In this document: positions 34,404 to 48,515 of the stretch, in pieces
How the letters are laid out: each line of letters begins with the position of its first letter
Position numbering within the stretch: position 1 is the stretch's first letter
Source: Rhodococcus maanshanensis NBRC 100610
GTDB taxonomy: Bacteria; Actinomycetota; Actinomycetes; Mycobacteriales; Mycobacteriaceae
Reading direction: 5' to 3'
DNA length: 64,000 nucleotides
Assembly: GCF_001894865.1 (NCBI RefSeq)
Contig: NZ_BCXA01000002.1
Span: 186,001 to 250,000, forward strand
Notes under the pieces: model-generated
The model's input: the letters and a program-made list of their open reading frames with translations, nothing else
Database searches by the model: none
What the model was told of the DNA's origin: nothing
Position numbers and translations under genes: made by a program

Positions 34404-35261
34404 ATGCTGGCCGATGTCGTCGGGCTGCTCGCCTGCCCGCATTGCGGCGGTGGGCTCGACGTCGCCGACCGCACCCTGCTGTGTGAACAGGGACACAGCT
34501 TCGACATCGCCAGGCAGGGCTACGTCAGCCTGTTGTCCGGGGCCGCGAAGTTCACCGGCGACAGCGCCGAGATGATCGCGGCCCGTGCCCGATTCCTCGA
34601 CGGCCACCATTTCGACCCGCTGATGGACGCGGTGGCCCGCGCCTGCGCCACCGATGCCCCTGCCGACCCGGCGGTGCTCGAGGTCGGCGCGGGTACGGGC
34701 CACTACCTCGCGGCCGTCCTCGACGCCCTGCCCGCCGCGCAGGGCATCGGCGTCGACGTCTCCAAGCCCGCCGCGCGATGGCTCGCTCGCAGCCATCCGC
34801 GGGCGGCGTCGGTGGTCGCCGACATCTGGACCCAGCTGCCGGTCCGCGCTCACGCCCTCAGTCATGTGCTGTCGATCTTCGCCCCGCGCAACGCCGCGGA
34901 GCTGCGCCGGGTGCTGCGGCAGGACGGAACGCTGATCGTGCTCACCCCGACGGATCGGCACCTGCGTGAACTCGTGGACCTGCTCGGCCTGGTCCGGGTG
35001 GACGAGAACAAGACGGTGCGCCTCGGCGCCAGCATGGCCGGGCACTTCGAGAGGGTGGACCGGGTTGCGGTCGAGTACCCGATGACGCTCGCGCGCACCG
35101 ATGTCGACAGCCTGATCGCGATGGGTCCGTCCGCGCGTCACCTCGGCGACGAGGCGAGGGCGCAGCGCATTGCCAGCTTGCCCGAGTCCTCGACGGTGAC
35201 GGCCTCCGTCACGATCAGCAGCTACCGCCCGGTCCCGGAGGCGGGCGCAGACCCGGTGTAG
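34404..35261 (+). CDS. Putative rRNA (guanine-N1) methyltransferase, RlmA/TlrB-like
   Basis: 285 residues. The N-terminal zinc finger CPHCGGGL...CEQGHSFD (Cys11, Cys14, Cys28, His32) and AKFTGDSAEMIAARARFLDGHHFDPL are hallmarks of RlmA(I)/RlmA(II), which methylate G745/G748 of 23S rRNA helix 35. A SAM-binding motif VLEVGAGTGHYLAAV follows (near 93-107), then the VLSIFAPRNAAELRRVL region. In actinobacteria, TlrB-type members give resistance to mycinosylated macrolides. Its 3' end overlaps that of glgM on the other strand by 40 bp. Confidence 0.87.
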   Translation: MLADVVGLLACPHCGGGLDVADRTLLCEQGHSFDIARQGYVSLLSGAAKFTGDSAEMIAARARFLDGHHFDPLMDAVARACATDAPADPAVLEVGAGTGHYLAAVLDALPAAQGIGVDVSKPAARWLARSHPRAASVVADIWTQLPVRAHALSHVLSIFAPRNAAELRRVLRQDGTLIVLTPTDRHLRELVDLLGLVRVDENKTVRLGASMAGHFERVDRVAVEYPMTLARTDVDSLIAMGPSARHLGDEARAQRIASLPESSTVTASVTISSYRPVPEAGADPV

Positions 35262-36427
35262 CCCTCGACCGCGGCCTGGTAGACGGCGAGGGTCTGCCTG
35301 GCGATCTGCTCCCAGGAGAATTCCGCGATCGCCCGCGCCCGGCCGGCCCTGCCCATCGCGGCCGCGCCCGCGCGGTCGGCGGTGACCGTGTTGACCGCCG
35401 CCGCCAGCGCGTGCTCGAACGCCTCCGGCTCGTAGGAGTTGTAGTGCACCAGACTCCCGGTGACGCCGTCCTCGACCACCTCGGGAATGCCGCCGACGTC
35501 GGAGGCCACCACCGCGGTCTCGGTGGCCATCGCCTCCAGGTTCACGATGCCGAGCGGCTCGTAGACCGAGGGACACACGAACACCGTTGCGGCGGAGAGG
35601 ATCTCCCGGACCTGCGCGGTGGGCAGCATCTCCCTGACCCAGAACACGTTGCGTCGCGCCTCGGACAGCTTCGCGACCGCCCGCTCGGTCTCCTCGGCGA
35701 TCTCCGCGGTGTCGGGGGCGCCTGCGCACAGCACCAGCTGCACATCCGGGTCGAAGTCGTGGGCCGCCGCGATCAGGTGGCCGACGCCCTTCTGTCGGGT
35801 GATCCGGCCGACGAAGGCCGCGATGGGGGCGTCCGGGTCGACGCCCAGGTCGCGCAGCACCGAGGTCGGGCGTTCGCCGCCGAAATCCGGGTACCAGACA
35901 TCGGTGTCAATCCCGTTGCGCACCACATGCACTCGATCCGGGTTGACGAACGGATAGGCGTCGAGCAGGTCGAGGCGCATGCCCGCGCTGACCGCGATGA
36001 CGGCGTCGGCGTACTCGACCGCGTTGCGCTCGGACCAGGAGGAGATGCGGTATCCACCGCCGAGCTGCTCGGCCTTCCACGGTCGGCGGGGCTCGAGCGA
36101 GTGGGCGGTCATGATGTGGGGCACCCCGTACAGCTCGCCCGCGAGGTGCCCGGCCAGGCCGGTGTACCAGGTGTGCGAATGCACCACGTCGGCCGCGCAT
36201 GCCGCCTGCGCCATCCGCAGCTGCGCCGACAACATGGTCAACGCGGGATTGGCGCCTGCCAGAGCGGGATCGGGCCCGTGCACGATCGCGCCCTCGCGGG
36301 GCTCGCCCATGCAGTGCACCTCGACGTCGCAGAGCCGCGTGAGCTGGGCCACGAGCTCGGTGACGTGGACCCCCGCGCCACCGTAGATCTCCGGGGGGTA
36401 CTCCCTGGTCATCATCGCAACCCGCAC
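35222..36427 (-). CDS. glgM: Alpha-maltose-1-phosphate synthase / glycogen synthase
   Basis: 401 residues, the orthologue of Rv1212c (called glgA or glgM). Transfers glucose from ADP-glucose to glucose-1-phosphate, making maltose-1-phosphate for alpha-glucan synthesis through GlgE. GT-B fold: MTREYPPEIYGGAGVHVTEL at the N-terminus, the ADP-glucose-binding region IAAFVGRITRQKGVGHLI, and the C-terminal FVCPSVYEPLGIVNLEAMA with the conserved glutamates. GTG start 36427 follows TACGTT with 6-nt spacing (leaderless type). Divergent from glgC, which supplies its ADP-glucose. Confidence 0.95.
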   Translation of the reverse strand: MRVAMMTREYPPEIYGGAGVHVTELVAQLTRLCDVEVHCMGEPREGAIVHGPDPALAGANPALTMLSAQLRMAQAACAADVVHSHTWYTGLAGHLAGELYGVPHIMTAHSLEPRRPWKAEQLGGGYRISSWSERNAVEYADAVIAVSAGMRLDLLDAYPFVNPDRVHVVRNGIDTDVWYPDFGGERPTSVLRDLGVDPDAPIAAFVGRITRQKGVGHLIAAAHDFDPDVQLVLCAGAPDTAEIAEETERAVAKLSEARRNVFWVREMLPTAQVREILSAATVFVCPSVYEPLGIVNLEAMATETAVVASDVGGIPEVVEDGVTGSLVHYNSYEPEAFEHALAAAVNTVTADRAGAAAMGRAGRARAIAEFSWEQIARQTLAVYQAAVEGYTGSAPASGTGR

Positions 36428-36501
36428 GCGATAAACGTAGCCGCCGAGCCGACTTGGGGCTACCGCTGGCGGGGGTAATGCCCGACCGATAGGTTGGCAG
36501 G
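36428..36501. promoter_or_regulatory. Divergent glgM/glgC promoter region with two leaderless-type -10 elements
   Basis: On the minus strand TACGTT (36439-36434) precedes the glgM GTG by 6 nt; on the plus strand TAGGTT (36490-36495) precedes the glgC GTG by 6 nt. The 74-bp gap has no ribosome binding site for either gene, so both mRNAs are probably leaderless. Confidence 0.6.
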
Positions 36502-37716
36502 GTGAGGAGCCAGCCGCATGTGCTCGGAATCGTGCTCGCCGGAGGCGAAGGGAAACGTCTGTACCCCTTGACCGCGGACCGGGCCAAGCCGGCGGTGCCG
36601 TTCGGCGGGGCCTACCGCCTGATCGACTTCGTGCTGAGCAACCTGGTCAACGCCGGCTATCTCCGGATCTGTGTGCTGACCCAGTACAAGTCGCATTCCC
36701 TCGACCGCCACATCTCGCAGACGTGGCGGCTGTCGGGTTTCGCGGGCGAGTACATCACCCCGGTCCCGGCGCAGCAGCGGCTCGGCCCGCGCTGGTACAC
36801 CGGCAGCGCGGATGCGATCTTCCAGTCGCTCAACCTGGTCTACGACGAGGACCCCGAGTACATCGTGGTGTTCGGCGCCGACCACGTGTACCGGATGGAT
36901 CCCGAGCAGATGGTCCAGCACCACATCGACTCGGGGGCGGGGGTCACCGTGGCCGGGATCCGTGTGCCACGCAGCGAGGCGTTCGCGTTCGGCTGCATCG
37001 ACAGCGACGAGTCGGGCCGCATCACCCAGTTCCTGGAGAAGCCGGCGCATCCGCCCGGCACCCCGGACGACCCGAACGTGACGTTCGCGTCGATGGGGAA
37101 CTATGTGTTCACCACGAAGGTACTGGTGGACGCCATCCGCGCCGACTCGGAGAACTCCGACTCCGACCACGACATGGGCGGGGACATCATCCCGGCGCTG
37201 GTCGCCGCCGGGATGGCCAACGTCTACGACTTCAAGGACAACGTGGTGCCCGGCGCAACCGACCGCGACCGCGGGTACTGGCGGGACGTCGGCACCATCG
37301 ACGCGTTCTACGAGGCGCACATGGACCTGGTGTCCGTCCACCCGGTGTTCAACCTCTACAACCGGCGCTGGCCGATCCGTGGCGCGGCCGAGAACCTGGC
37401 GCCGGCCAAGTTCGTGCAGGGCGGGCTCGCCCAGGAATCGGTGGTGGGCGCCGGCTGCATCCTGTCCGCCGCGACCGTCCGCAACTCCGTGCTCAGCTCC
37501 AACGTGATGGTCGACGACGGCGCCACCGTCGAGGGCAGCGTGCTGATGCCGGGCGTGCGCGTCGGCAAGGGCGCGGTGGTGCGGCACGCGATCCTGGACA
37601 AGAACGTGGTGGTCGGCGAGGGCGAGATCATCGGCGTCGACCTCGAGCGTGACCGGCAGCGGTTCGCGGTCAGCCCTGGCGGCGTGGTCGCGATCGGCAA
37701 GGGCGTCTGGATCTGA
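36502..37716 (+). CDS. glgC: Glucose-1-phosphate adenylyltransferase
   Basis: 404 residues. Makes ADP-glucose for GlgM and glycogen synthase. N-terminal nucleotidyltransferase with [37 protein letters not shown] and [10 protein letters not shown]; the substrate region is [17 protein letters not shown]. The C-terminal beta-helix has hexapeptide turns ([19 protein letters not shown]). Length and sequence match Rv1213. Confidence 0.97.
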
Positions 37717-37951
37717 GCCCCCTGTCCGCGGCCGGTCGGGTAACGGTTCGATGTGCGGGTTCGCCGAGGCGTCTCGGATGAGTAACGAGATCTTCGTTCC
37801 GCAATCCCTGATCCTCGTTTCCCTGGTCTAATGGAATGCTCAGAGACAGAATGGATTTCGACAGCGAGTAAGCCCTAACCCAAGGTCAGCCGGCCACCCG
37901 TACCGGTCAGTCGCACACGCGCGCGGGGGCCCCAGAGTTTCGGGATGCGCG

Positions 37952-39220
37952 ATGATCGAAGCAGTGCTGGGGCTCTCCACGAGCACAAGCGAGCCGGCGC
38001 AACCCCGACCCGAGTCGGCGCAACCCCGACCCGAGCCGGCGGAGCGAATCGACGACGCACGTGGCGGTCGTGTGGTTCTCCACGGGTTGCTCGCGATTGC
38101 GACGTTGACACCGGCGCAGGCCGCGCTGCTCGTCACCGATGTGGTCGATCAGCTCGAGCTGGTGCGGAGCCGGGACGGCTACCCGATCATCCGGGACCAC
38201 GGGGTGACGGTGTCCGAGCGGGGACAGCTCACGATCGAGTGCACCGGGAGCGCGGCGTCCTGGCACGACATGGACGAGGCGGTGGCGAGTCTGCTGCGGA
38301 GTATCGCGACGAGCTGTCGGGATCGTGCGCTCGCCGACCGGTTGGACGAATCGATCGCCCGAACAACAGATCTGGCAGACCTGGCGCAACGGGTTCGCGG
38401 TGCGGTCGCGACGGAGCTCGACCCGTCCACGGTTGGCAGGACGCGGTGCCAGCTCGCGGAGCTCGTCTCGGCGACGAGGGGGCTGGCACACTCGGACGAT
38501 CGGGTCGTGACGGACCGCGCGAACTCGCAGGGCCCACCGACCCCGCCGACCCCGGCCGCCGCATCGTCGCTCGCCCCGAAGGGCTGGTATCCACCCGTCG
38601 AGAATCCGTGGCATCGCAAGCGGCGGCGGCTGTCGCGTCGTGGGGGTGTACTCGGCCTGATCTCGATCCTGCTGTTCGTCGGGGTGGTGTGGGCGGCTCC
38701 CGGTGCGTGGTCGGAGCTGCGTCGGGGCTGGGATGCCCTTCTGCATCCGGTGAATCCGTCGGAGCAGAATCAGATCAGTCCGGTCTCGCCGCCGCCGCCG
38801 CTCGCGCCCGAAGCCGCCCAGGCGAACTCACCGACCGCGCAGGGCACCGCCGAGGCTGGGCCGGTCCATACCGGACTTCCCGGCAGCGCGGGGCCGATCA
38901 CCCTGGTCACCGCCACCTTCGCCAACGGGGAATGCGCGACGGGACAACCGTGCACCATGCGGGTCGACGTCCACGTCGATCCTGCTGCGAATGTCGGCGC
39001 GGTGACCTGGCATGTGGTCGTGTACGACCGATGCTCGGGAGCCGTTCATCCGGGCACTGACGTGACGACGCCCGTGCCGCCGGGTGGGCAGCAGGTGTAC
39101 GGCATCGCCAGGGTCGTCCTGCCGCCCGCCCCCGCGCTCGCCGTCGCCGCGCTGACCAACGCCCCTGCGGCAGCCGCGTCGGAGCCGGCATTCGTGCCCG
39201 CCGAGAACGCAAAGTGCTGA
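37952..39220 (+). CDS. Bitopic membrane protein with RodZ-like topology
   Basis: 422 residues, not recognised as a known family. Order: an N-terminal Pro-rich stretch with the heptapeptide [E(P/S)AQPRP] repeated; a cytoplasmic mostly helical region (about 40-185); a basic patch HRKRRRLSRR (221-230); one transmembrane helix (about 232-250); a Pro/Ala linker; and an extracytoplasmic beta-rich domain (about 313-405) with a probable disulfide (Cys328, Cys334). Cytoplasmic domain, one helix, outer beta domain is the RodZ plan, but I see no convincing HTH in the N-terminal part. Residues 52-98 faintly recall a degraded kinase C-lobe. It ends 13 bp before the SEDS-PBP gene, so they form an operon, and it may anchor or regulate that synthase. 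Confidence 0.7.
   Translation: MIEAVLGLSTSTSEPAQPRPESAQPRPEPAERIDDARGGRVVLHGLLAIATLTPAQAALLVTDVVDQLELVRSRDGYPIIRDHGVTVSERGQLTIECTGSAASWHDMDEAVASLLRSIATSCRDRALADRLDESIARTTDLADLAQRVRGAVATELDPSTVGRTRCQLAELVSATRGLAHSDDRVVTDRANSQGPPTPPTPAAASSLAPKGWYPPVENPWHRKRRRLSRRGGVLGLISILLFVGVVWAAPGAWSELRRGWDALLHPVNPSEQNQISPVSPPPPLAPEAAQANSPTAQGTAEAGPVHTGLPGSAGPITLVTATFANGECATGQPCTMRVDVHVDPAANVGAVTWHVVVYDRCSGAVHPGTDVTTPVPPGGQQVYGIARVVLPPAPALAVAALTNAPAAAASEPAFVPAENAKC
37991..38040. repeat. 21-bp tandem repeat in coding sequence
   Basis: Two full copies of a 21-bp unit (37991-38011, 38012-38032; one T/C difference) and a third partial copy. It encodes the heptapeptide repeat EPAQPRP/ESAQPRP near the N-terminus of the bitopic protein, and may vary in copy number. 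Confidence 0.8.
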
Positions 39221-39233
39221 GGGGTGGGGTCGC

Positions 39234-42059
39234 ATGCAGGCGCACAAGCGAGAATCCGACCCCTGGCTCGTAGCGGCGGCGATCACCCTCGTCGTCCTCG
39301 GCCTGCTCAACCTGGTCTCGACGGGGAAGACCACGGATGCCGTCCGTCACGCACTCTTCGCTGCCATCGGCCTCGGTGCGATGTACGCGATATCGCGACT
39401 GCGGACCGGCACCCTCCGACGATTCGGCTGGACGTTGTATGCCGCTGCGGTCGTCCTGCTCGCTGCGGTGCCACTCATCGGGATCGCGACCAAGGGTGCG
39501 CAGCGATGGCTGAACTTCGGCCTGTTCACCGTTCAACCGTCCGAACTCGCCAAGCTGGCGCTGGTCATGGTCCCCGCGGCGATCCTGGCGGGTGGGTACA
39601 CCCTCGGCCGGTTCGCGGCGACCCTGCTGATCTCGAGTGTGCCGATCGGTCTCGTGGCGCTGCAGCCCGACCTGTCGACCGCCGTGGTGCTCGCCTCGAC
39701 CGTGATACTCATGCTGATCCTGGCCAGGGTGCCGCTGCTGCCCCTGCTGCCGCTGTTCGCGCTCGGGATCGCATCGTTGCCCCTTGCCGTGCTGTTCCTC
39801 CGGCCCTATCAGCTCGAGCGCATTCACGTGTTCCTGTCGAGCAACGCCGACCCGCAGGGGTCGGGTTGGGCGGCGCTGCAGGCCGACATCGCGATCGGCA
39901 GCGGCGGGTGGTTCGGTCTCGGGCGTGAGCCGTTTTACGACCTGAGGGCCGAGTACCTTCCCGAATCGGAGCACGATCTCGCCTTCGCGAGCCTCGTGTA
40001 CGGATGGGGGTTGTTCGCCGGCCTGGCAGTCGTGGTCGCCACGATGATCATCGTGTGGCGGGCCGCGCTGGCCGCCCGAACGGCACGCACCAGGGAAGCC
40101 GCCCTCGTCGCGGCCGGGATCGGTGGGCTGTTCGGAGTGCAGGCCGTGGTCTCCATTGCGCAGAGCCTGTCGCTCCTCCCGCACACCGGCATGCCGATCC
40201 CCCTCTTCAGTTACGGGGGCACGGCGGCAATCGTCGGATTCGTCGCGATCGGGCTGGTGCTCGCGATCCGCCGCGACGGCGTCACGCGTCCCCTGTGGGC
40301 CACCGAGTCCAGGCGGCGCCGCCTGCCCCGAGGAGTGTCAACAGGCGCCGTCACGGTCACAGCGATGCTCCTCGCGCTGTCGGTGTTCGCGTGGCAGCTG
40401 CAGACCGGTCGGGGTACGGAGTTGCGCACGATGAGCGACGTGCAGATGGAGCGTTGCATCCGTCTACCCGCCGAGCGGGGTCACATCCTCGACCGAAACG
40501 GCGAGCCGCTCGCGTACAACGTCCCCGAGTACGCCGTCGCGGTGGTTGCCCGGATGTTCGACCGTGACGACGGGCCCGTGCGCGCCGAACTGGCCGCGCT
40601 GCTCGGCGTCACGCCCGAACAGCTGGCGGCGACCCTGGAGAGCGGCGGCCAGGAGTTGGAGGTCGTACTGGGCCGGGTCACCGCCGAGCAGGCTCGGCGG
40701 GTCGTGGACGCCCAACTCCCGTGGGTGCTCGTGTACCCGACCGGGCGCAGGCACTACCCGCACGGGGCATCGCTGGCATCCGTCCTCGGGTACGTCGGGC
40801 TCGCGGATCCGCATGACATGGAACGCTGGCCCCACCTCGCCCTCGGATCACGGGTCGGCAAGGCGGGTACCGAGAAGCAGTACGACGCGCTGCTCCGCGG
40901 CACCGACGGCAAGCAGTGCATGTTCGTCGATCCGTCCGGGCGTCTGGTGGCCACCGGCGAGCGGGTGGACCCGGTGCGGGGACACGACCTGAAGTTGCAC
41001 CTCGACATGGGGATGCAGCAGCTCGCGACCGATGCGCTCACCGATGCGGTGCGCAGCAGTGGGGGCGATATGGGCGCGGCGATCGTGATGGACGCCCGCA
41101 CCGGGGCGGTGCTGACGCTGGCCAGCGTGCCCGGATACGACAACAACGTCTACGGCCCCCCGGTCGACGCGGTCGCGCTGGCGGCACAGACCGAGGGGCC
41201 AGGGCCGGGACGGATGCTCAACCACGCCGACCAGTCCGCGGCACCGCCCGGCTCGACCTTCAAGATCGTCGTCGCGGCGGCCAACGCGAAGTACAACGTG
41301 CTGTCGCCGGACGCCCAGCTCGCGGGCGGTGCGTCGTACACCTATGGAGGGCACACATTCGCGAACTGGCAACCGATGGGGCCGAACAGCTTGATCGGGG
41401 CGATCCAGTGGTCGGACAACGTCTACTTCTACCAGCTCGCCGAACTCCTCGGCCCCGAGCGAATCGCGGCAACCGCCGCGGAGTTGGGCGTTGGCGAGGA
41501 ATCGGGGATCGACCTGCCGGGCGAGGCCGTGGGCTTCCTCGGCACCCCGGAGAACGTCGGCAGCATCGGGGGAACCTGGTATCCGGGGTCGACGCTGCTG
41601 ATGGGCATCGGTCAGGGCACCGTCAGCGCGACGCCTGTGCAGTTGGCGCGCTGGACGTCGGGCATCGCCACCGGCTCGACGGTGACCCCCCAGCTCGCCG
41701 CGGCGTACGGGCCGGACGCCCTGCCCATTCCCACCGCTGACCCTCGGCGACTGTCCTTCGCGGACCAACTCGGCCCCGTCCGAGCAGGGATGCGAGCATC
41801 TGCCGCTGCCGGAACGGCCGGGCAGTTGGCCACCTTGCCGGTCGCGGCGGGCGCCAAGACCGGAACGGCGGAGGATCCGTCGGCACCAGGAAAAGGCCTC
41901 AATGCCTGGTTCTCGGCGGTGGTGCCCTTCGACGCTCCCGAGATCGTGGTCTCGGTGCTGGTCCGTGGCGGTGGATTCGGGTCGGCAACGTCCGGGCCCG
42001 TCGCCAAGAAACTCCTCGAGCGCTACCTCGCACAACCACGGGCCGTGCCGAACCGCTGA
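39234..42059 (+). CDS. Fused SEDS glycosyltransferase and class B penicillin-binding protein
   Basis: 941 residues, one frame without break. Residues 10-350 are a RodA/FtsW (SEDS) polymerase with about ten helices: KGAQRWLNFGLFTVQPSELAK (88-108), LQPDLSTAV (143-151), ESEHDLAFA with the catalytic-type Asp248, and TGMPIPLFSYGG (318-329). A further helix (about 370-388) leads into a class B PBP: pedestal motif ERGHILDRNGEPLAYN (414-429), then a transpeptidase domain with SxxK at S674-K677 (STFK), SxN at 727-729 (SDN) and KTG at 875-877. Both active sites are intact, so one chain should polymerise lipid II and cross-link the glycan. SEDS proteins normally act with a separate class B PBP (RodA-PBP2, FtsW-FtsI). 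Preceded by a RodZ-like gene and convergent with mreB; whether it serves elongation, sporulation-like or stress growth is unknown. Confidence 0.93.
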   Translation: MQAHKRESDPWLVAAAITLVVLGLLNLVSTGKTTDAVRHALFAAIGLGAMYAISRLRTGTLRRFGWTLYAAAVVLLAAVPLIGIATKGAQRWLNFGLFTVQPSELAKLALVMVPAAILAGGYTLGRFAATLLISSVPIGLVALQPDLSTAVVLASTVILMLILARVPLLPLLPLFALGIASLPLAVLFLRPYQLERIHVFLSSNADPQGSGWAALQADIAIGSGGWFGLGREPFYDLRAEYLPESEHDLAFASLVYGWGLFAGLAVVVATMIIVWRAALAARTARTREAALVAAGIGGLFGVQAVVSIAQSLSLLPHTGMPIPLFSYGGTAAIVGFVAIGLVLAIRRDGVTRPLWATESRRRRLPRGVSTGAVTVTAMLLALSVFAWQLQTGRGTELRTMSDVQMERCIRLPAERGHILDRNGEPLAYNVPEYAVAVVARMFDRDDGPVRAELAALLGVTPEQLAATLESGGQELEVVLGRVTAEQARRVVDAQLPWVLVYPTGRRHYPHGASLASVLGYVGLADPHDMERWPHLALGSRVGKAGTEKQYDALLRGTDGKQCMFVDPSGRLVATGERVDPVRGHDLKLHLDMGMQQLATDALTDAVRSSGGDMGAAIVMDARTGAVLTLASVPGYDNNVYGPPVDAVALAAQTEGPGPGRMLNHADQSAAPPGSTFKIVVAAANAKYNVLSPDAQLAGGASYTYGGHTFANWQPMGPNSLIGAIQWSDNVYFYQLAELLGPERIAATAAELGVGEESGIDLPGEAVGFLGTPENVGSIGGTWYPGSTLLMGIGQGTVSATPVQLARWTSGIATGSTVTPQLAAAYGPDALPIPTADPRRLSFADQLGPVRAGMRASAAAGTAGQLATLPVAAGAKTGTAEDPSAPGKGLNAWFSAVVPFDAPEIVVSVLVRGGGFGSATSGPVAKKLLERYLAQPRAVPNR

Positions 42060-42064
42060 TCCCC

Positions 42065-42084
42065 GATCCACCGCGGGGTGGATC
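42065..42084. terminator. Short stem-loop between SEDS-PBP and mreB
   Basis: GATCCACC and GGTGGATC pair perfectly around GCGG, in the 33-bp gap between the convergent stops. Confidence 0.5.
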
Positions 42085-42092
42085 AGGGCCGA

Positions 42093-43082
42093 TCAGTCGC
42101 TGTAAGCGGCAACCACTTCGGGGTGATCGAGGCAGGCGGTCGCACCTTCGGCGACACAGGTCAGCGGGCGCTCGGCCGTCTTCACAGGGAGCCCGAAGGT
42201 CTCTTCGAGCAGCTGCGACAGACCGTGCAGCAGCGACCCACCGCCGAGCGTCAGGAGCCCCTCGGACATCACGTCACCGATCGCCTGCGCGGGGATGTCC
42301 TCCAGGCATGCGGCCAGCGTCTGCACGATCCCGGTCGTGGTCGGCCGCAACGCATCCACGATCTCCTCGGTCTCGAGCGTGACCAGACGTGCCCGTCCGG
42401 TCACGGCGTCGCGGCCCTCGACGACGAGCGACTGCCCCTCGCCGGTCTCGGGCGCGCCGACCTTCACCCGCTCGGCGGTGAGCTCGCCGACGATGATGTT
42501 GTGCTCGGTCCGCAGGTAGTGATACAGCGCGTTGGTCAGTTCATCACCTGCGAGCCGGCAACTGCGATGCGAGAGCATGCCGCCATAACAGAACGCGGTG
42601 ACTTCCGAAGTGCCGCCGCCGATGTCGACGACGAGGTGGGCGCGGGGTTCGAGCGGGTTGATCCCGCAGCCGAGTGCCCCCGCGACCGGCTCCGGTATCA
42701 GCCCGACCTTTCGCAGACCGGCCTCGTGTCCGACCTCGAGCAGAGCCCGACGCTCGAGCGAGGTGGCGCCTGCGGGAACCGAGATGACGCCCTTCGGCCG
42801 CACGCCGTACCGCCTGCTCGGGGCCGCGCGTTTGATGACGGCCGTGACGAAGGCCTGGGCCGACTCGAGGTCGACGATCACCCCGTCGTGCATCGGACGA
42901 ACGGGCGTGACTCCCATGGGATTGCGGCCGACCAGGTCTCGCGCTTCCGTGCCGATCGCGAGGGCGTGGTGCGGATCCTTCTCTCGCACCAGCATGAACG
43001 ATGGCTCGTTCAGGACGATGCCGTCTTCGGGGGTCCCGACGACAGTGTTGGTGGTTCCGAGATCGATACCAAGTCCGCTCAC
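42093..43082 (-). CDS. mreB: MreB-family actin homologue
   Basis: 329 residues with the full MreB/Hsp70-actin ATPase pattern: phosphate-1 GIDLGTTNTVV (5-15), GIVLNEPSF (21-29), RPMHDGVIVD (62-71), VPAGATSLERRAL (102-114), catalytic-type Glu131 in LIPEPVAGALG, phosphate-2 VVDIGGGTSEV (151-161), GELTAERVKV (199-208), adenosine motif LLTLGGGSLLHGL (276-288) and PLTCVAEGA (306-314). These places match MreB rather than DnaK. It lacks the N-terminal amphipathic helix of E. coli MreB and is slightly short. GGAGG stands 5 nt before the GTG start. MreB guides RodA/PBP2-type synthases, and here it lies beside a fused one. Mycobacteria and corynebacteria have no MreB. Confidence 0.93.
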   Translation of the reverse strand: MSGLGIDLGTTNTVVGTPEDGIVLNEPSFMLVREKDPHHALAIGTEARDLVGRNPMGVTPVRPMHDGVIVDLESAQAFVTAVIKRAAPSRRYGVRPKGVISVPAGATSLERRALLEVGHEAGLRKVGLIPEPVAGALGCGINPLEPRAHLVVDIGGGTSEVTAFCYGGMLSHRSCRLAGDELTNALYHYLRTEHNIIVGELTAERVKVGAPETGEGQSLVVEGRDAVTGRARLVTLETEEIVDALRPTTTGIVQTLAACLEDIPAQAIGDVMSEGLLTLGGGSLLHGLSQLLEETFGLPVKTAERPLTCVAEGATACLDHPEVVAAYSD

Positions 43083-43213
43083 GTCGGCCTCCGAGAGGTG
43101 TTCCAGCGAGATGGTTCGATGGTACGCAGCGGCTCCGGCGTTCGGTCGAGATCGCGGTGACTCGTCACAGATCCGCGCTCAACCGTTATCGACCTCACCG
43201 TTCGGTTGATCGC

Positions 43214-43543
43214 TCAGTGGACCTCCATCAGCTCGGCCCACGACTCGACGTTGGGGTGACGCTTGAGCAACGCCCGGCGCTGGCGCTCGGTCATCCCGCC
43301 CCAGACGCCGAACTCGACTCGGTTGTCGAGGGCCTCGGCCCCGCACTGGATGATGACGGGGCACTGGCGGCACGCGGCGGCCGCCTCGCGTTGGGCTGCG
43401 CCGCGAACGAACATCTGATCGGGGTTCTGCGCACGGCACAGCGCACGCTCCACCCAGGCGTGCGGCATGGCGAGGAGGGGGTAGTCGCATTCCGCGGGGG
43501 CATAGCTCCCGGACTCCGGTCGGGGGCGGCTTGAGCACATCAC
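43214..43543 (-). CDS. WhiB-family iron-sulfur regulator, WhiB4-like
   Basis: 109 residues (GTG 43543; ATG 43540 is equally possible). Four cluster cysteines Cys36, Cys58, Cys61, Cys67 (C-x21-C-x2-C-x5-C) and the WhiB turn VWGGMTERQRR (80-90). MFVRGAAQREAAAACRQCP and EFGVWGGMTERQRRALLKRHP resemble mycobacterial WhiB4, a redox-sensing DNA-binding protein. It lies 131 bp upstream of mreB on the same strand, in a separate or shared transcript; no terminator is seen between them. Confidence 0.93.
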   Translation of the reverse strand: MMCSSRPRPESGSYAPAECDYPLLAMPHAWVERALCRAQNPDQMFVRGAAQREAAAACRQCPVIIQCGAEALDNRVEFGVWGGMTERQRRALLKRHPNVESWAELMEVH

Positions 43544-43662
43544 GAGACCCCATGGTGCCCCGGATCGAGCCTGCCCGACAGCCGTTTTGGCGGAAGTTGG
43601 TCAACTGTCCATCTCGGGGTAACGGCGCGTTTCGGCCGTACATGGGGAGCCGGGCGAACCGG

Positions 43663-45306
43663 CTATCGGAGGTCCCGCCGCCGGAACGCGACAAGGCCGG
43701 CGACGAGCAGCCCCGCATCGATCACCAGGAGCCACACGACAGGGGCGGCCTCGAAGCCCGCGCCTGGCAACTTGGGCGTGTGGCTGAAGGGTTGGAGGTC
43801 GAGCACCCACTGCGGGACGCCCGAGATGGAACCGAGCAGGAACAGGGCCACGAACGTCACCAGCACGCCCCACGCCACCGGGGTGAAACGCGGAACCAGT
43901 CCGAAGAGCAGCACCGTCACCGCCGCCAGCATCCAGACGGCAGGCAGCTGCACGAGCCCGGTGGCAAGCACCCCTGGGAGCTTGCCCCCGACATCGCCTG
44001 CCGCGACACCGTAGGTCACCCCGGCAACCAGCCCGGCGGCGAGCATGGCGACGGCAGGGCCGACGAACGCGAAGACGACATGGCTTGCGGCCCATCGGAT
44101 CCGGCCGACCGCACCGGAGGTCACGGACTCGGCGCGCTGCGCGGTCTCCTCGCCGTGCAGGCGCAGCGCCGAGGAGATCGCGAGCGCAGCGGCGCCGACG
44201 GCGAGCATGGTGAACGCGATCGTGATGAACGCGTCCTCGAGGGCCTGCGTTCCGCCCATCCGGCTGACGATCTCCCGGATCGTGTCGCCGCCGCCGAGCT
44301 CGTCGCCGATCCCGTGCACGACGCTGCCGATCAGCAGTGCGTACAGGCTGATCCCGATGGTCCACGCGATGAGCGTGCCCCGCTGCAGTCGCCAGGACAG
44401 GCCGAACGGGCCGCTCAGCACCCGCGCCGCTGTCGGCGCACCGAGGCGCTCCGCGATCACCCCCGCACCGACGTCCCGCCTGCGCAGCAACGCATACGCC
44501 GCCACGGTGAGCGCGATCGCCGTGGCCAGGTGCAGCAGGAGCACCCACCAGCGGTCGCCCGCGTACGGCCGCACCTGCAGCGACCAGCCCAGCGGCGACA
44601 GCCAGGACAGTGCGGCCGGACCGGCGTCGCCGACGGCACGGAGCGCGAATGCGGTCCCGAGGACGGCGAAGGCGATGCCGCGGGCGGTGCGGGCACTGGT
44701 GCTCAGCTGCGCCGCGACGGCGGCGACCGCCGTGAACACGATGCCGGATGCCGCCAGCGCGAGTCCGAACGCGATCGAGCCCGCGCGCGGCACGTCGGTG
44801 CCGAGCAGTCCCGCCGCGCCGATCGCCCCGGTCGCGATGGACGCGCCGAAGGCGACCAGCAACGCGGCGGTCAGGCCCGCGTACCGGCCGACGACGGTCG
44901 AGTCGAGCAGCTCCGTCCGACCGCTCTCCTCCTCCGCCCTTGTGTGCCGGATGACGGTGAGGATCACCGCGATCGCGATCAGCGTGTAGAAGATCCCGGC
45001 TTTCCAGATGCCGACGGCGCCGAGGCTGTCGTTGTAGATCTCGCCGTACATGGCGCGTTGAGCCGGGCTCCCCATGATGGTGGCGGCGAATGCCGCACGC
45101 TCCGCCTCGTCGGGGTAGATGCTCTCGATGCTGCCCATGTAGACGGGAGCAAGCGGCAGCGAGAGGAGCAGCACCCAGAGCGGTAGCACGATCCGGTCGC
45201 GCCGCAGGAAGAGCCGGACGAAGCCGAGCGTGCCGGTGAGGTTCGACGCCCCGCGCGGAGCCGCCGCGGCCGGATACCGTGGCCCCGCGACTGTCACGGT
45301 GCTCAT
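43663..45306 (-). CDS. ABC exporter permease (tetronasin/polyketide type)
   Basis: 547 residues with about twelve membrane helices, no ATPase motif. Starts with [26 protein letters not shown] and contains [13 protein letters not shown], signatures of the anibiotic exporter permeases related to TnrB3 and M. tuberculosis Rv1217c. Its GTP-independent partner ATPase overlaps it by 4 bp upstream. Such systems export antibiotics or lipophilic drugs; Rv1217c-Rv1218c has been tied to drug efflux. Confidence 0.9.
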
Positions 45307-46220
45307 GCCGTCACCTTCTCTCCGGTGGGCTCGGGTCCCTCGACCTGGTAGTGGCGAAGGAACAGTTCCTCGAGCGTCGGCGGCTTGCTGACCAGGCTGC
45401 GCACCCCGGCGTCGCCGAGCACGCGGATCAGCTCGCCCAGGTGTTCGCTGTCGACCTGGCAGTGCAGCGTGTGATCGTCGATCGAGATGTCATCGACGCC
45501 CGCGAGCCGGCTGAGGTCGCCTGGGTCGCCCGTCAACTCGGCACTGATCGAGGTGCGGCTCAGGTGTCGCATCGAGGACAGCGAGCCGCTCTCCACGGTC
45601 TTGCCCAACCGGATGATGGTCACCCGGTCGCACAGCGCCTCCACCTCGGACAGGATGTGGCTGGACAGCAGCACGGTGACACCGCGGCGGGCCGCCTCGG
45701 CGACGCAGTCGCGGAAGACCTGTTCCATCAGCGGGTCGAGGCCGGAGGTCGGCTCGTCGAGCAGGAGCAGTCGGGCGTTCGACGACAACGCCGAGATCAG
45801 GGACACCTTCTGCCGGTTGCCCTTCGAGTACGTGCGCGACTTCTTGCGTGGATCGAGGTCGAAGCGCTCGATGAGCTCGGAACGCCTGGCCTCGTCGATG
45901 CCGCCGCGCATCCGGGCCAACAGGTCGATGGTCTCGCCGCCGGTCAGCGACGGCCACAGCGTGACGTCGCCAGGAACGTAGGCCAGGTCGCGGTGCAGGG
46001 CGACGGCGTCACGCCACGGGTCGCGGCCGAGGACAGTGGCGCTGCCCGCGGTCGCGCGCAGGCTGCCGAGCAGCACCCGGATGGTGGTCGACTTGCCCGC
46101 GCCGTTGGGGCCGAGGAAGCCGTGCACCTCGCCGGGCGCGACCTGTAGGTCGAGGCCGTCGAGGGCCCGGGTCTGACCGAACGTCTTGACCAGGTCGCGA
46201 ACGTCGATGAGCGGGTTCAT
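45303..46220 (-). CDS. ABC exporter ATP-binding protein
   Basis: 305 residues (Rv1218c-like). Walker [10 protein letters not shown] (near 37-45), Q-loop, signature [14 protein letters not shown] (with the LSGGQ position as YSKGNRQK), Walker [14 protein letters not shown] and the switch histidine in [15 protein letters not shown]. The C-terminal ~80 residues are the extension of DrrA-type drug exporters. Overlaps both its permease and the TetR gene by 4 bp, giving a three-gene operon. Confidence 0.95.
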
Positions 46221-46888
46221 GGCATCTCCTCGGTTGGGGCATCGGCGGCCAGGAAGGCGTCGAGCAGCGAGGAGTCGGTGAAGATCCCCTCGGCGTACAT
46301 CTCGAGAGCGGGCAGGGTGATCTCGTCCGACAGGTCGCGGATGGCCGTGGCGTAGTCGAGCGCTCCCTCCCGGTCCGCCCTTATCTGTAGGTAGAGCAGC
46401 AGCGCGCCGACGTTGTTCAGGGTGAGATACCGCGCCCGCGCCTTCGGGTCGCGGCTCGCTCGCAGCTTGCCGGAGCGCACTCCGATCGCGAGGTACTCCT
46501 CGGTGTCGGCCACCATGTGCTCGAAGAGGGACTCGGCGAGCCGGCCGCCTGCCTGGAAGCTGCGGACCATGTACGCGACGACCGGCGCGTACTGCTCGAG
46601 TTCGCTCAGCGCCGCGATCGCGCCCGCAGGCCCCGGCGTCGACATGGCCTGAGCCTTCTGTTCCCTGATGATCTCGAGAACGTGCGCGTCACATTCGGCG
46701 CGCAGTCCGTCCTTGGAGCCGAAATGGTGGTTCACCAGCCCGGGGGAGACCCCCGCCGCGGTCGCGATGGCGCGGACGCCGGTGACGAAGCCCTGCTCGC
46801 CGAAGACCCGGATCGCCGTGTCGCGGATCCGCGCACGGGTGGTCAGGTCCCGGTCGGGGGTGGTTGGCTCGGCTGGCATTGAACGCAT
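46217..46888 (-). CDS. TetR-family repressor of the ABC exporter operon
   Basis: 223 residues from ATG 46888, chosen because TAATCT ends 7 nt upstream on the minus strand, giving a leaderless start; ATG 46879 is the alternative. The N-terminal HTH reads [44 protein letters not shown], and the C-terminal ligand domain has a hydrophobic core as in Rv1219c. It presumably represses its own operon through the palindrome that covers its promoter, with the exporter's drug substrate as inducer. Confidence 0.92.
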
Positions 46889-46913
46889 GTTTAGAAGATT
46901 AAACACTCGTTCA
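46880..46913. promoter_or_regulatory. TetR operator with two nested inverted repeats
   Basis: TGAACGNNTGTTTA-N6-TAAACANNCGTTCA: inner TGTTTA/TAAACA arms and outer TGAACG/CGTTCA arms are perfect, with 12 of 14 positions in each half symmetric. The centre includes the -10 element (TAATCT on the minus strand, 46901-46896) and the transcription start, so occupancy would block the tetR-ABC operon directly. Confidence 0.75.
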
Positions 46914-46982
46914 GTCGCTCGGCAACGGTTCTCCCGTCAAGAGGCCGTAAAAATTCGCCGACGAAGGCGGCAGTCGGTGCCG

Positions 46983-47666
46983 CTACTCCGAACGCGACGC
47001 GCAGAGCAGGCCGTCGCCCACCGGCAGCAGCACCTTCGTCAGGCGGTCGTCCTCCGCGATCGCCCGTGCTGCCGCACGCACGGCGAGGGTGGTCGCGTCG
47101 CGCTGGTTGGGGTCGGCGACCCGACCGCCGAGCAGCGCGTTGTGCAGGACGATCACCCCTCCTGGCCGGAGCAGCCGGACCCCCTCGGCGACGAACTGCG
47201 GGTGGTCGGCGGGCGAGGTGTCCACGAACACCAGGTCGTAGGCGGCGTCGGCGAGACGGGGCAGCACGTCCAGTCCCCAGCCGTTGATCAGCCGGGTGCG
47301 GCCGGGCGCGATCTCGCCGGACCGGAACGCGTCCTTGGCGGCCCGCTGGTGCTCGGGTTCGGTGTCGATGGTGGTCAGGACCCCGTCGGCACGCATGCCG
47401 TCGAGCAACCACAGCCCGCTCACGCCTGCACCGGTCCCGATCTCGACCACGGTCTTGGCGTCGAGCATCTGGGTGAACAGGCTCAACAGCGCGCCGACGG
47501 ACGGCGGAACCGGGGTCGCGCCGAGATCCTCCGCCCGTTCGCGTGCGAGCGTGAGGACCGCGTCCTCGAGGACCGATTCCTCGGTGTGAGCCAGCAGCTG
47601 CTCGGCGTTGTTGTGCACGAATCCGAGGTTATAGCCGACACGCTGTGGTGGAGTCGAGGCGCGCAC
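46983..47666 (-). CDS. O-methyltransferase, COMT-like
   Basis: 227 residues (Rv1220c-like). SAM-binding motif [16 protein letters not shown] (near 94-109), acidic residue in [13 protein letters not shown], and the metal-site region [13 protein letters not shown], where the family often has D-A-D; the first Asp is kept but the second is replaced. It lacks a clear N-terminal extension; start GTG 47666 is tentative. Catechol-type or small-molecule methylation is likely; substrate unknown. It lies between the TetR gene and divergent sigE, as in Mycobacterium. Confidence 0.88.
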
Positions 47667-47693
47667 GTGATATTGGCCGCTGACCCGCAGATT

Positions 47694-47727
47694 CTCAGCT
47701 GAACCTCAGGTTGCTCACACATCTCAC
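47694..47727 (+). promoter_or_regulatory. Run of four CTCA(G/C) direct repeats upstream of sigE
   Basis: CTCAG at 47694 and 47705, then CTCAC at 47714 and 47723, with spacings of 11, 9 and 9 bp. This resembles the loosely conserved direct octamers bound by the response regulator MprA, known to activate sigE in M. tuberculosis. It lies about 175-205 bp before the sigE start. Confidence 0.4.
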
Positions 47728-47900
47728 ACATTTGGATCAGAAAAGGTGGGTCCACACGAGATCGCTGACCGCCCCGGAAGGGGGTACCGGACGAAACCGT
47801 CGAGGGGAACAAACCCGACACTTCGGGGGTTGTGCCTTTTGTCCAGATCGTCCTGTGCTCGCTCACCAGCTGTCCTTAGCAGGAGGTTTCCACAATCTCG

Positions 47901-48515
47901 ATGGTCAACGCCGTTCCCGCCTTCGATGCGGAATTCACCGAGTCGGCTGATCTGAGCGGTACCGCCGCCTTCGACGCCACCGGCGATCAGACCGCCATGC
48001 CCTCATGGGACGAGCTCGTCCGTGAGCACGGCGACCGGGTGTATCGGCTGGCCTACCGGCTCTCGGGCAACGCCCAGGACGCCGAGGACCTCACCCAGGA
48101 GACCTTCATCCGGGTGTTCCGGTCGCTCTCGAACTACCAGGCGGGCACCTTCGAGGGGTGGCTGCACCGGATCACCACGAACCTGTTCCTCGACATGGTG
48201 CGGCGCCGCAACCGGATCAAGATGGAGGCACTGCCCGAGGACTACGAGCGGGTCCCGTCCGACCGCCCGAACCCCGAGCAGATCTACCACGATGCCCGGC
48301 TCGATCCCGAGTTGCAGTCCGCGCTGGACTCGCTGGCGCCCGAGTTCCGCGCCGCGGTGGTGCTCTGTGACGTCGAAGGCCTGTCATACGAGGAGATCGG
48401 TGCCACACTGGGAGTCAAGCTCGGTACCGTACGCAGCCGAATCCACCGTGGGCGGCAGGCGCTCAAGGAGTATCTGACCGCGGTGTCGGGGACAGGGAAG
48501 ATGACATTCGCATGA
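47901..48515 (+). CDS. sigE: ECF sigma factor SigE
   Basis: 204 residues; ATG 47901 is the only in-frame start after an upstream stop at 47878-47880. AGGAGG lies 15 nt upstream, longer than ideal. Region 2 ([30 protein letters not shown], near 51-80) and region 4 ([47 protein letters not shown]) are complete. Orthologue of Rv1221 SigE, the envelope-stress sigma factor, shorter at the N-terminus than the longest mycobacterial form. It forms the sigE-rseA-htrA-tatB block with tight spacing. Confidence 0.95.

What the first reader, a model, noticed from the sequence alone, without database searches (positions are those of the whole stretch)
37952..43082. Compact accessory envelope-synthesis module: RodZ-like protein, fused SEDS-PBP and MreB in a mycolata genome
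Three neighbouring genes encode a bitopic protein with RodZ-like topology, a single polypeptide holding both peptidoglycan polymerase and transpeptidase, and an MreB actin. Together they resemble a minimal Rod complex (MreB, RodZ, RodA, PBP2) but with RodA and PBP2 fused and without MreC/MreD. The block sits between glgC and the ABC-exporter genes, which are close neighbours in the mycobacterial order, so it looks inserted. Mycobacteria and corynebacteria have no MreB and elongate at the poles, so the purpose of such a set in this lineage (side-wall synthesis, rod-coccus change, branching, dormancy) is open.
Basis: partly seen in the sequence, partly recalled or inferred. Interest (0 to 1): 0.88.

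Follow-up and report, generated by a model that had tools for sequence, protein, structure and literature searches.

The report
Fused wall-building module with MreB
A three-gene set in Rhodococcus-like bacteria and some other actinobacteria encodes an actin-type filament protein, a cell-wall polymerase joined to its cross-linking enzyme, and a new membrane protein, which suggests that bacteria thought to grow only at their tips carry a second, compact wall-building machine.

Summary
Observation confirmed: three intact genes at the stated coordinates, P1 (422 aa, bitopic, no known family), a 941-aa RodA-PBP2 fusion with its catalytic residues, and a convergent MreB. They form a unit. Of 121 family genomes searched for each, the same 24 have all three, side by side. 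In 52 distinct loci, also from Geodermatophilaceae, Pseudonocardiaceae, Jiangellaceae and unnamed families, partners are missing only in three loci cut by contig ends; three gene orders occur. In the window's genome it is a third SEDS system beside RodA-PbpA and FtsW-FtsI, and the only MreB. MreC is over the cut-off in 2 of 20 module genomes searched, both with a canonical mre locus as well. Module MreBs and fusions each form one clade. P1 is not RodZ by the tests run: no HTH found; its cytoplasmic part distantly resembles a kinase C-lobe and is missing in some members, while the outer four-cysteine domain is the constant core. Best reading: a compact MreB-guided, non-polar peptidoglycan synthase, the fusion's cytosolic linker docking MreB and P1 activating from outside. 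Function is inferred, not shown. A new variant of the Rod complex; ten literature searches showed no description.

The parts
37952..39220 (+). P1: 422-aa bitopic protein (one TM at residues 232-251), new family
   Evidence: ORF; no family over cut-off; homologues in 50 of 52 module loci; TM by hydropathy
38102..38239 (+). P1 residues 51-96: stretch resembling the alpha-E / catalytic loop / beta7-8 part of a protein-kinase C-lobe, catalytic motifs lost
   Evidence: hhalign E 3.5e-5 against 18 kinase domains, best of 200 column shuffles 0.17; weak support elsewhere: PDB profile hits E 0.16, no kinase family in Pfam at E<=10
38867..39217 (+). P1 residues 306-422: extracytoplasmic domain with four invariant cysteines (C328, C334, C361, C422)
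   Evidence: 28 rows; best conserved region of P1 (mean 0.58 against 0.32-0.49 elsewhere)
39234..42059 (+). Fusion of RodA-type SEDS glycosyltransferase (19-347) and PBP2-type transpeptidase (411-929)
   Evidence: D248, S674xxK677, S727, K875-T-G conserved in 17 of 17 fusions aligned
40269..40334 (+). Fusion residues 346-367: cytosolic linker between SEDS and PBP TM, invariant L354-W355 and P365-R366; proposed MreB dock
   Evidence: E. coli RodA C-tail and PBP2 N-terminus bind MreB (PMC13327600)
42093..43082 (-). Module-type MreB, 329 aa, convergent to the fusion
   Evidence: module MreB clade 100/100 apart from canonical MreB and from MreB/Mbl of two Streptomyces-like genomes; nucleotide-site motifs kept
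43214..43543 (-). WhiB-like gene inside the inserted block; of 23 relative loci only L030 has it, so not part of the conserved module
   Evidence: Pfam Whib
37717..43662 (.). Block inserted between glgC (ends 37716) and the ABC permease (43663-45306)
   Evidence: empty sites in G047, G064, G095, G026
37870..37951 (+). 5' region of P1 conserved among loci with different neighbours (about TTTCGGGRTGCGCG just before ATG); possibly the module's own promoter or leader
   Evidence: 17 of 24 family loci aligned; consensus hairpin not supported (-0.4 kcal/mol)

Best explanation
A self-contained Rod-type machine that has changed genomic place over evolution. Inferred mechanism: module MreB forms ATP-dependent filaments under the membrane. 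The RodA half polymerises lipid II and the PBP2 half cross-links it. The fusion fixes their 1:1 pairing and joins the RodA C-tail to the PBP2 N-terminus as one cytosolic linker, the two segments that bind MreB in E. coli, so the linker docks the synthase on MreB without MreC (and perhaps without MreD and RodZ). P1 activates or anchors the synthase from outside through its four-cysteine domain, as MreC does for PBP2; its kinase-like cytoplasmic part is an optional regulatory add-on. Likely output: MreB-placed, non-polar wall synthesis (side-wall thickening or reshaping), probably in slow, fragmenting, coccoid or resting cells, since polar growth has its own RodA-PbpA. Shown: genes, co-occurrence, synteny, catalytic residues, phylogeny. 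Inferred: complex formation, linker dock, P1 role, timing.
For: Co-occurrence: same 24 of 121 genomes for all three; P1 and MreB each in 50 of 52 fusion loci, all misses at contig ends, three gene orders. No fourth gene recurs: in 35 of the 52 loci the only clusters shared by three or more lineage groups were the three module genes and shadow frames over them. PBP half on the side of canonical Rod PBP2, away from PbpA and FtsI (96/91); the fusion's SEDS profile scores canonical RodA at 189-242 bits, FtsW 127-168, polar RodA 66-97. Catalytic residues in 17 of 17. Linker LW and PR invariant in 17 of 17, between families about 46-55% identical apart from one closer pair; MreB binding of the matching E. 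coli segments is published. MreC over cut-off in 2 of 20 module genomes. Third SEDS in the window's genome. Streptomyces uses its elongasome-like complex for spore wall.
Against: No expression, interaction or phenotype data. The linker as a whole is no more conserved than the rest (0.67 against 0.66 for SEDS). E. coli MreB K89, needed for PBP2 binding, is not conserved even among canonical MreBs, so it tells nothing. MreD and RodZ were not searched genome-wide, and the MreC search may miss divergent MreC: it stayed silent in the control Thermotoga maritima, which rang for MreB; G081 has a sub-cut-off MreC match (E 0.0065). SEDS half: grouping with canonical RodA is weak (78/27), and both halves fall below the NCBIfam cut-offs for RodA and PBP2. 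In 6 of 27 module MreBs the residue at E. coli E143 (hydrolytic-Glu region) is changed. In L116 (Blastococcus) MreB is about 7 kb away and read in two frames, so perhaps broken. No structure of P1 could be predicted.
Confidence: 0.55

Rival explanations
1. Relic of a canonical vegetative elongasome that shrank by losing MreCD and RodZ.
For: PBP2-type half, RodA-like SEDS and MreB.
Against: G727 and G518 carry the module beside a canonical MreB-MreC-PBP2-RodA locus; module MreB and fusion form their own clades with long stems; gene order is reversed (SEDS before PBP; in the canonical loci examined PBP2 comes before RodA); catalytic residues kept.
Confidence: 0.12
2. Back-up or beta-lactam-tolerant peptidoglycan synthase, induced under wall stress, with MreB only as a spatial cue.
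For: Third SEDS-bPBP in the genome; patchy distribution and more than one site within a genus, as for accessory functions; WhiB-like gene next to it in two loci.
Against: No other gene recurs beside it; no low-affinity PBP signature was tested; MreB retained in 50 of 52 loci points to placement, not only rescue.
Confidence: 0.18
3. P1 is a RodZ analogue that links MreB to the synthase from the cytoplasmic side.
For: Same topology: N-terminal cytoplasmic domain, one TM, extracytoplasmic domain.
Against: No HTH; comparison with E. coli RodZ 0.3-2.5% probability (one RodZ sequence only); the P1 profile match begins behind the kinase-like region in L043, L135, L139 and L146, and late in L140, although MreB is present in all five.
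Confidence: 0.12
4. Accessory polar or branching synthase recruited by DivIVA/Wag31 rather than by MreB geometry.
For: A review states that all actinobacteria studied by then grow apically (PMC3296230, passages).
Against: Fusion is far from the polar RodA-PbpA pair; MreB kept in 50 of 52 loci, the two misses at contig ends.
Confidence: 0.1

Closest known systems
Rod complex / elongasome (MreB, MreC, MreD, RodZ, RodA, PBP2) of E. coli and B. subtilis
   Same: MreB plus RodA-like SEDS plus PBP2-type transpeptidase, catalytic residues kept
   Different: RodA and PBP2 are one protein in reversed order; MreC over cut-off in only 2 of 20 module genomes; P1 unrelated to RodZ by the tests run; own MreB clade
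[quoted passage not shown] members MreBCD, PBP2, Sfr, RodZ, Mbl partly recalled)
   Same: MreB-based wall synthesis in a tip-growing actinobacterium, with kinase control of MreC and PBP2 (PMC4416010 abstract); P1 has a kinase-like stretch
   Different: MreB and Mbl of two Streptomyces-like genomes lie outside the module clade; SSSC has separate canonical genes (recalled)
Minimal E. coli elongasome of MreB with RodA-PBP2 variants (PMC13327600)
   Same: MreB and RodA-PBP2 can act in part without MreCD and RodZ; MreB is bound by RodA C-tail and PBP2 N-terminus
   Different: That one is a laboratory mutant; here a natural fusion joins those two segments
Polar RodA-PbpA of Mycobacteriales
   Same: SEDS before bPBP gene order; present in the same genome
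   Different: Separate clade in both halves, no MreB partner beside it

Membership tests
Rod complex | MreB actin present | tested here: met
   PF06723 E 3.7e-92; nucleotide-site motifs kept
Rod complex | SEDS glycosyltransferase with catalytic Asp | tested here: met
   PF01098 217 bits vs 26.4; D248 in 17 of 17
Rod complex | SEDS of RodA subtype | tested here: inconclusive
   TIGR02210 247.8 bits, best SEDS model but below its 336.7 cut-off; tree placement weak (78/27); profile scores favour RodA
Rod complex | PBP2-type bPBP with SxxK, SxN/SxD, KTG | tested here: met
   Motifs in 17 of 17; tree 96/91; TIGR03423 388.3 bits is the best model but below its 455 cut-off
Rod complex | MreC | tested here: not met
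   No PF04085 match in the window's genome; over cut-off in 2 of 22 genomes searched, 20 of them with the module
Rod complex | MreD | not tested
   No genome-wide search; no recurrent extra neighbour in 35 loci
Rod complex | MreB-dependent side-wall synthesis | not testable with these tools
   Needs microscopy
RodZ | Cytoplasmic HTH that binds MreB | tested here: not met
   No HTH family; comparison with E. coli RodZ 0.3-2.5%
RodZ | Single TM, N-in | tested here: met
   Hydropathy and basic juxtamembrane stretch
MreB/Mbl family | PF06723 over gathering score; NF010539 over cut-off | tested here: met
   309.1 bits vs 27; 301.6 vs 293; TIGR00904 289.2 is below its 365.75 cut-off
Streptomyces Mbl | Groups with Streptomyces Mbl | tested here: not met
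   Module clade 100/100 without it; that G408 and G428 are Streptomyces, and which gene is Mbl, is my inference from size and scores
Ser/Thr protein kinase | Catalytic HRD, DFG, Lys | tested here: not met
   Not seen in alignments A4, A6; no Pfam kinase at E<=10; remote similarity only
MreC | Sequence match of P1 to PF04085 | tested here: not met
   No match

The most novel reading that the evidence does not exclude
A distinct class of MreB-guided peptidoglycan synthase, horizontally spread among polar-growing actinobacteria, in which fusion of RodA to PBP2 creates a built-in MreB dock and a new kinase-derived membrane protein replaces MreC, MreD and RodZ; it would give mycolata a hidden side-wall or resting-cell wall machine separate from polar growth.
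Probability: 0.45. Interest if true: 0.88.

Novelty: new variant of a known kind. Interest (0 to 1): 0.78.

Why it matters
Papers seen here in passages say that mycobacteria and corynebacteria lack MreB and that Mycobacterium tuberculosis and relatives lack Rod components other than RodA-PBP2. A compact MreB-SEDS-PBP set in Rhodococcus and kin makes it testable whether such cells make wall away from the poles and when. A natural one-chain RodA-PBP2 is also a ready tool for structure and for studying how MreB docks on the synthase, and P1 is a new family with clear partners.

Tried and rejected
RNA hairpin in front of P1: a CCCGC...GCGGG inverted repeat looked conserved, but the consensus fold has 5 pairs and -0.4 kcal/mol; dropped. 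No Rfam match over gathering score in 35000-48000. Sigma-70-type promoters and terminators: none found, uninformative for this GC-rich host. Flanking direct repeats of the insertion: 8 two-copy families (16 nt or longer), none pairing the two junctions; integrases were not searched for. Other recurrent neighbour genes: none shared by three or more groups (crude gene calls, group labels set by me; its first version, timed out). MreB K89 as a marker of PBP2 binding: not conserved among canonical MreBs either. Streptomyces Mbl as the origin of module MreB: rejected by tree. Kinase similarity: the first column-shuffle control held one outlier (E 1.7e-19 of 60) when gap-rich columns were permuted too; I cannot explain it; repeated on the 232 match columns only, best of 200 was 0.17 and the reversed alignment gave 0.22. 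Single P1 sequences score weakly against the kinase profile: of 41 rows (five of them second copies of the same genome) 38 had a score, and 8 beat the best of 820 shuffled sequences (3.4 bits); the window's own P1 does not. Rows dropped: eight long-branch or closely similar MreBs were left out of the second MreB tree; both trees give the one module clade.
Full report
What is there. P1 (37952-39220) has no family in Pfam or NCBIfam. The fusion (39234-42059) has a SEDS part, one further TM and a PBP2-type part; aligned to E. coli RodA and PBP2 it shows the catalytic Asp (D248), SxxK (S674, K677), S727 and KTG (K875) in 17 of 17 fusions. The MreB gene (42093-43082) is convergent. The fusion recurs in 52 loci, so it is not an assembly artefact.

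A real unit. In 121 family genomes (own plus 120 drawn by the tool from a larger group) MreB, fusion and P1, each searched on its own, were found in the same 24, from 6 of 31 genera. In all 23 relatives the order is P1, fusion, convergent MreB; in 21 of the 23 none of the window's flanking genes glgA and glgC lies nearby. Outside the family the fusion (E<=1e-120) was found in 10 genomes of the order sample (13 of 298 with three of the family), in 5 of the class sample (6 of 394 with the own genome) and in none but the own genome of the phylum sample (1 of 396); more distant fusions would be missed. All 15 of these loci were checked with profiles. Tally over 52 distinct loci: fusion 52, P1 50, MreB 50; the misses are L109, L119 and L137, all at contig ends. 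46 have P1, fusion, convergent MreB (in L116 MreB is about 7 kb away and split over two frames); L139 has MreB, P1, fusion in one direction; L141 and L142 have P1 beyond MreB. The loci outside the family were found through the fusion, so P1 or MreB without it was looked for only in the 121. Staying together through changes of order is strong evidence for joint function. In 35 of the loci nothing else recurs next to it in three or more groups.

Insertion. In the window 5.9 kb lie between glgC and the ABC permease. In G047, G064, G095 and G026 glgC is followed directly by the permease; in G009 and G023 by the methyltransferase gene that comes next; in G029 the two are 4.2 kb apart without the module. 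G064, G095, G026, G009 and G023 carry the module elsewhere, G047 not at all. G081, of the window's genus, has it at the glgC site as the window does. So it sits at more than one site within one genus. No flanking repeat marks the move; integrases were not searched for.

Relations. Trees of the SEDS half (52 rows), the PBP half (50 rows) and MreB (43 rows; 39 rows with two Streptomyces-like genomes) each give one module clade with 100/100 support. The names RodA-PbpA and FtsW-FtsI for the other pairs are mine, from gene context (kinases beside the first) and scores. The PBP half lies on the canonical Rod side (96/91), away from PbpA and FtsI. For SEDS the join to canonical RodA is weak (78/27), but profile scores favour canonical RodA (189-242 bits) over FtsW (127-168) and polar RodA (66-97). 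In the canonical loci examined PBP2 comes before RodA, in the module SEDS before PBP; only that order suits a fusion, since SEDS ends inside and a bPBP begins inside (inference from recalled topology; simple hydropathy found 8, not 10, helices in the SEDS part). In SEDS and MreB trees the window's family joins Jiangellaceae (100/98 in both), against families of its own order, whereas PbpA groups the order together (97/89); the PBP half leaves this open. This suggests transfer but is not a formal test.

Not the standard machine. The window's genome has one MreB at E<=1e-40, no MreC, and three SEDS: two standard ones and the fusion. Of 22 genomes searched for MreC, 20 with the module and 2 without, 2 had it over the cut-off: G727 and G518, which also have a second, canonical MreB beside MreC, PBP2 and RodA. 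G081 has a sub-cut-off match (E 0.0065). The MreC model was silent in the control Thermotoga maritima, which rang for MreB, so divergent MreC could be missed. In G727 the two MreBs are 37% identical. All 16 canonical MreBs have T after GGGT (or its equivalent), all 27 module ones S or A; the hydrolytic-Glu position is changed in 6 of 27.

P1. One TM after a basic stretch. The cytoplasmic part carries a stretch like the kinase C-lobe around alpha-E and beta7-8: hhalign E 3.5e-5 (probability 72%, one comparison) against 18 kinase domains, best of 200 shuffles 0.17. Other support is weak: of 13 PDB hits up to E 10, four of the first six are PknB chains, at a non-significant 0.16-0.19, beside a keratin and a ribosomal protein; Pfam shows no kinase at E<=10 in ten members. 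L138 and L141 look most kinase-like by eye. Catalytic motifs are gone. In L043 the start of P1 is kept but this region is missing, and in L135, L139 and L146 the profile match begins behind it. The outer domain, with C328, C334, C361 and C422 invariant in 28 rows, is the best conserved part. I therefore read P1 as an outside-acting partner that works like MreC, not as RodZ. This is inference.

Linker. Residues 346-367 join the RodA C-tail to the PBP2 N-terminus. In E. coli these two segments bind MreB, and MreB with a mutant RodA-PBP2 forms a minimal elongasome (PMC13327600: abstract, section list and two results sections read). In 17 fusions L354, W355, P365 and R366 are invariant, though mean linker conservation (0.67) equals that of the SEDS part (0.66). 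Prediction: the linker is the MreB dock.

Literature. Seen as passages: PMC4255298 ([quoted passage not shown] MreB annotated in all Geodermatophilaceae genomes studied), PMC8406291 (no hit for fused or fusion), PMC8262863, PMC3989709. Abstract and section list only: PMC4416010. I found no description of the fusion or module in the listings of ten searches; most subscription papers are not held.

Verdict. A real three-gene module in several actinobacterial families, undescribed as far as searched; most likely an MreB-guided fused RodA-PBP2 synthase with a new accessory protein. A role in side-wall or resting-cell wall is a hypothesis.

Noticed in passing
window 43214-43543 (-), L030: A WhiB-like gene lies directly upstream of mreB in the window and, of 23 relative loci, only in L030; it may add redox or stress control there.
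   Followed up: partly
window 37870-37951 and 16 family loci: About 80-90 nt in front of P1 are conserved among loci with different neighbours, ending about TTTCGGGRTGCGCG before ATG; the module may carry its own promoter or leader.
   Followed up: partly
L280 (G047) and L282 (G026): Extra polar-RodA-like SEDS genes without a bPBP found next to them.
   Followed up: no
L002-L005 (own genome): PF06723 also rings over its cut-off on four long frames (563-645 aa; E 3.3e-19 to 1e-6), probably DnaK-type proteins; the 'MreB-like domain' reported for mycobacterial DnaK_3 (PMC11946739, passages) may be this superfamily cross-match.
   Followed up: no
L277, L278 (G727, G518): Two genomes with both a canonical mre locus and the module.
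   Followed up: yes
L126, L127, L180, L116: About 0.9-1.2 kb (L126, L127, L180) or about 7 kb (L116) between fusion and MreB, content not identified; in L116/L144 the MreB match is split over two frames.
   Followed up: no
window 37990-38031: A 21-nt tandem repeat in the P1 frame duplicates seven residues; L030 has one copy.
   Followed up: no
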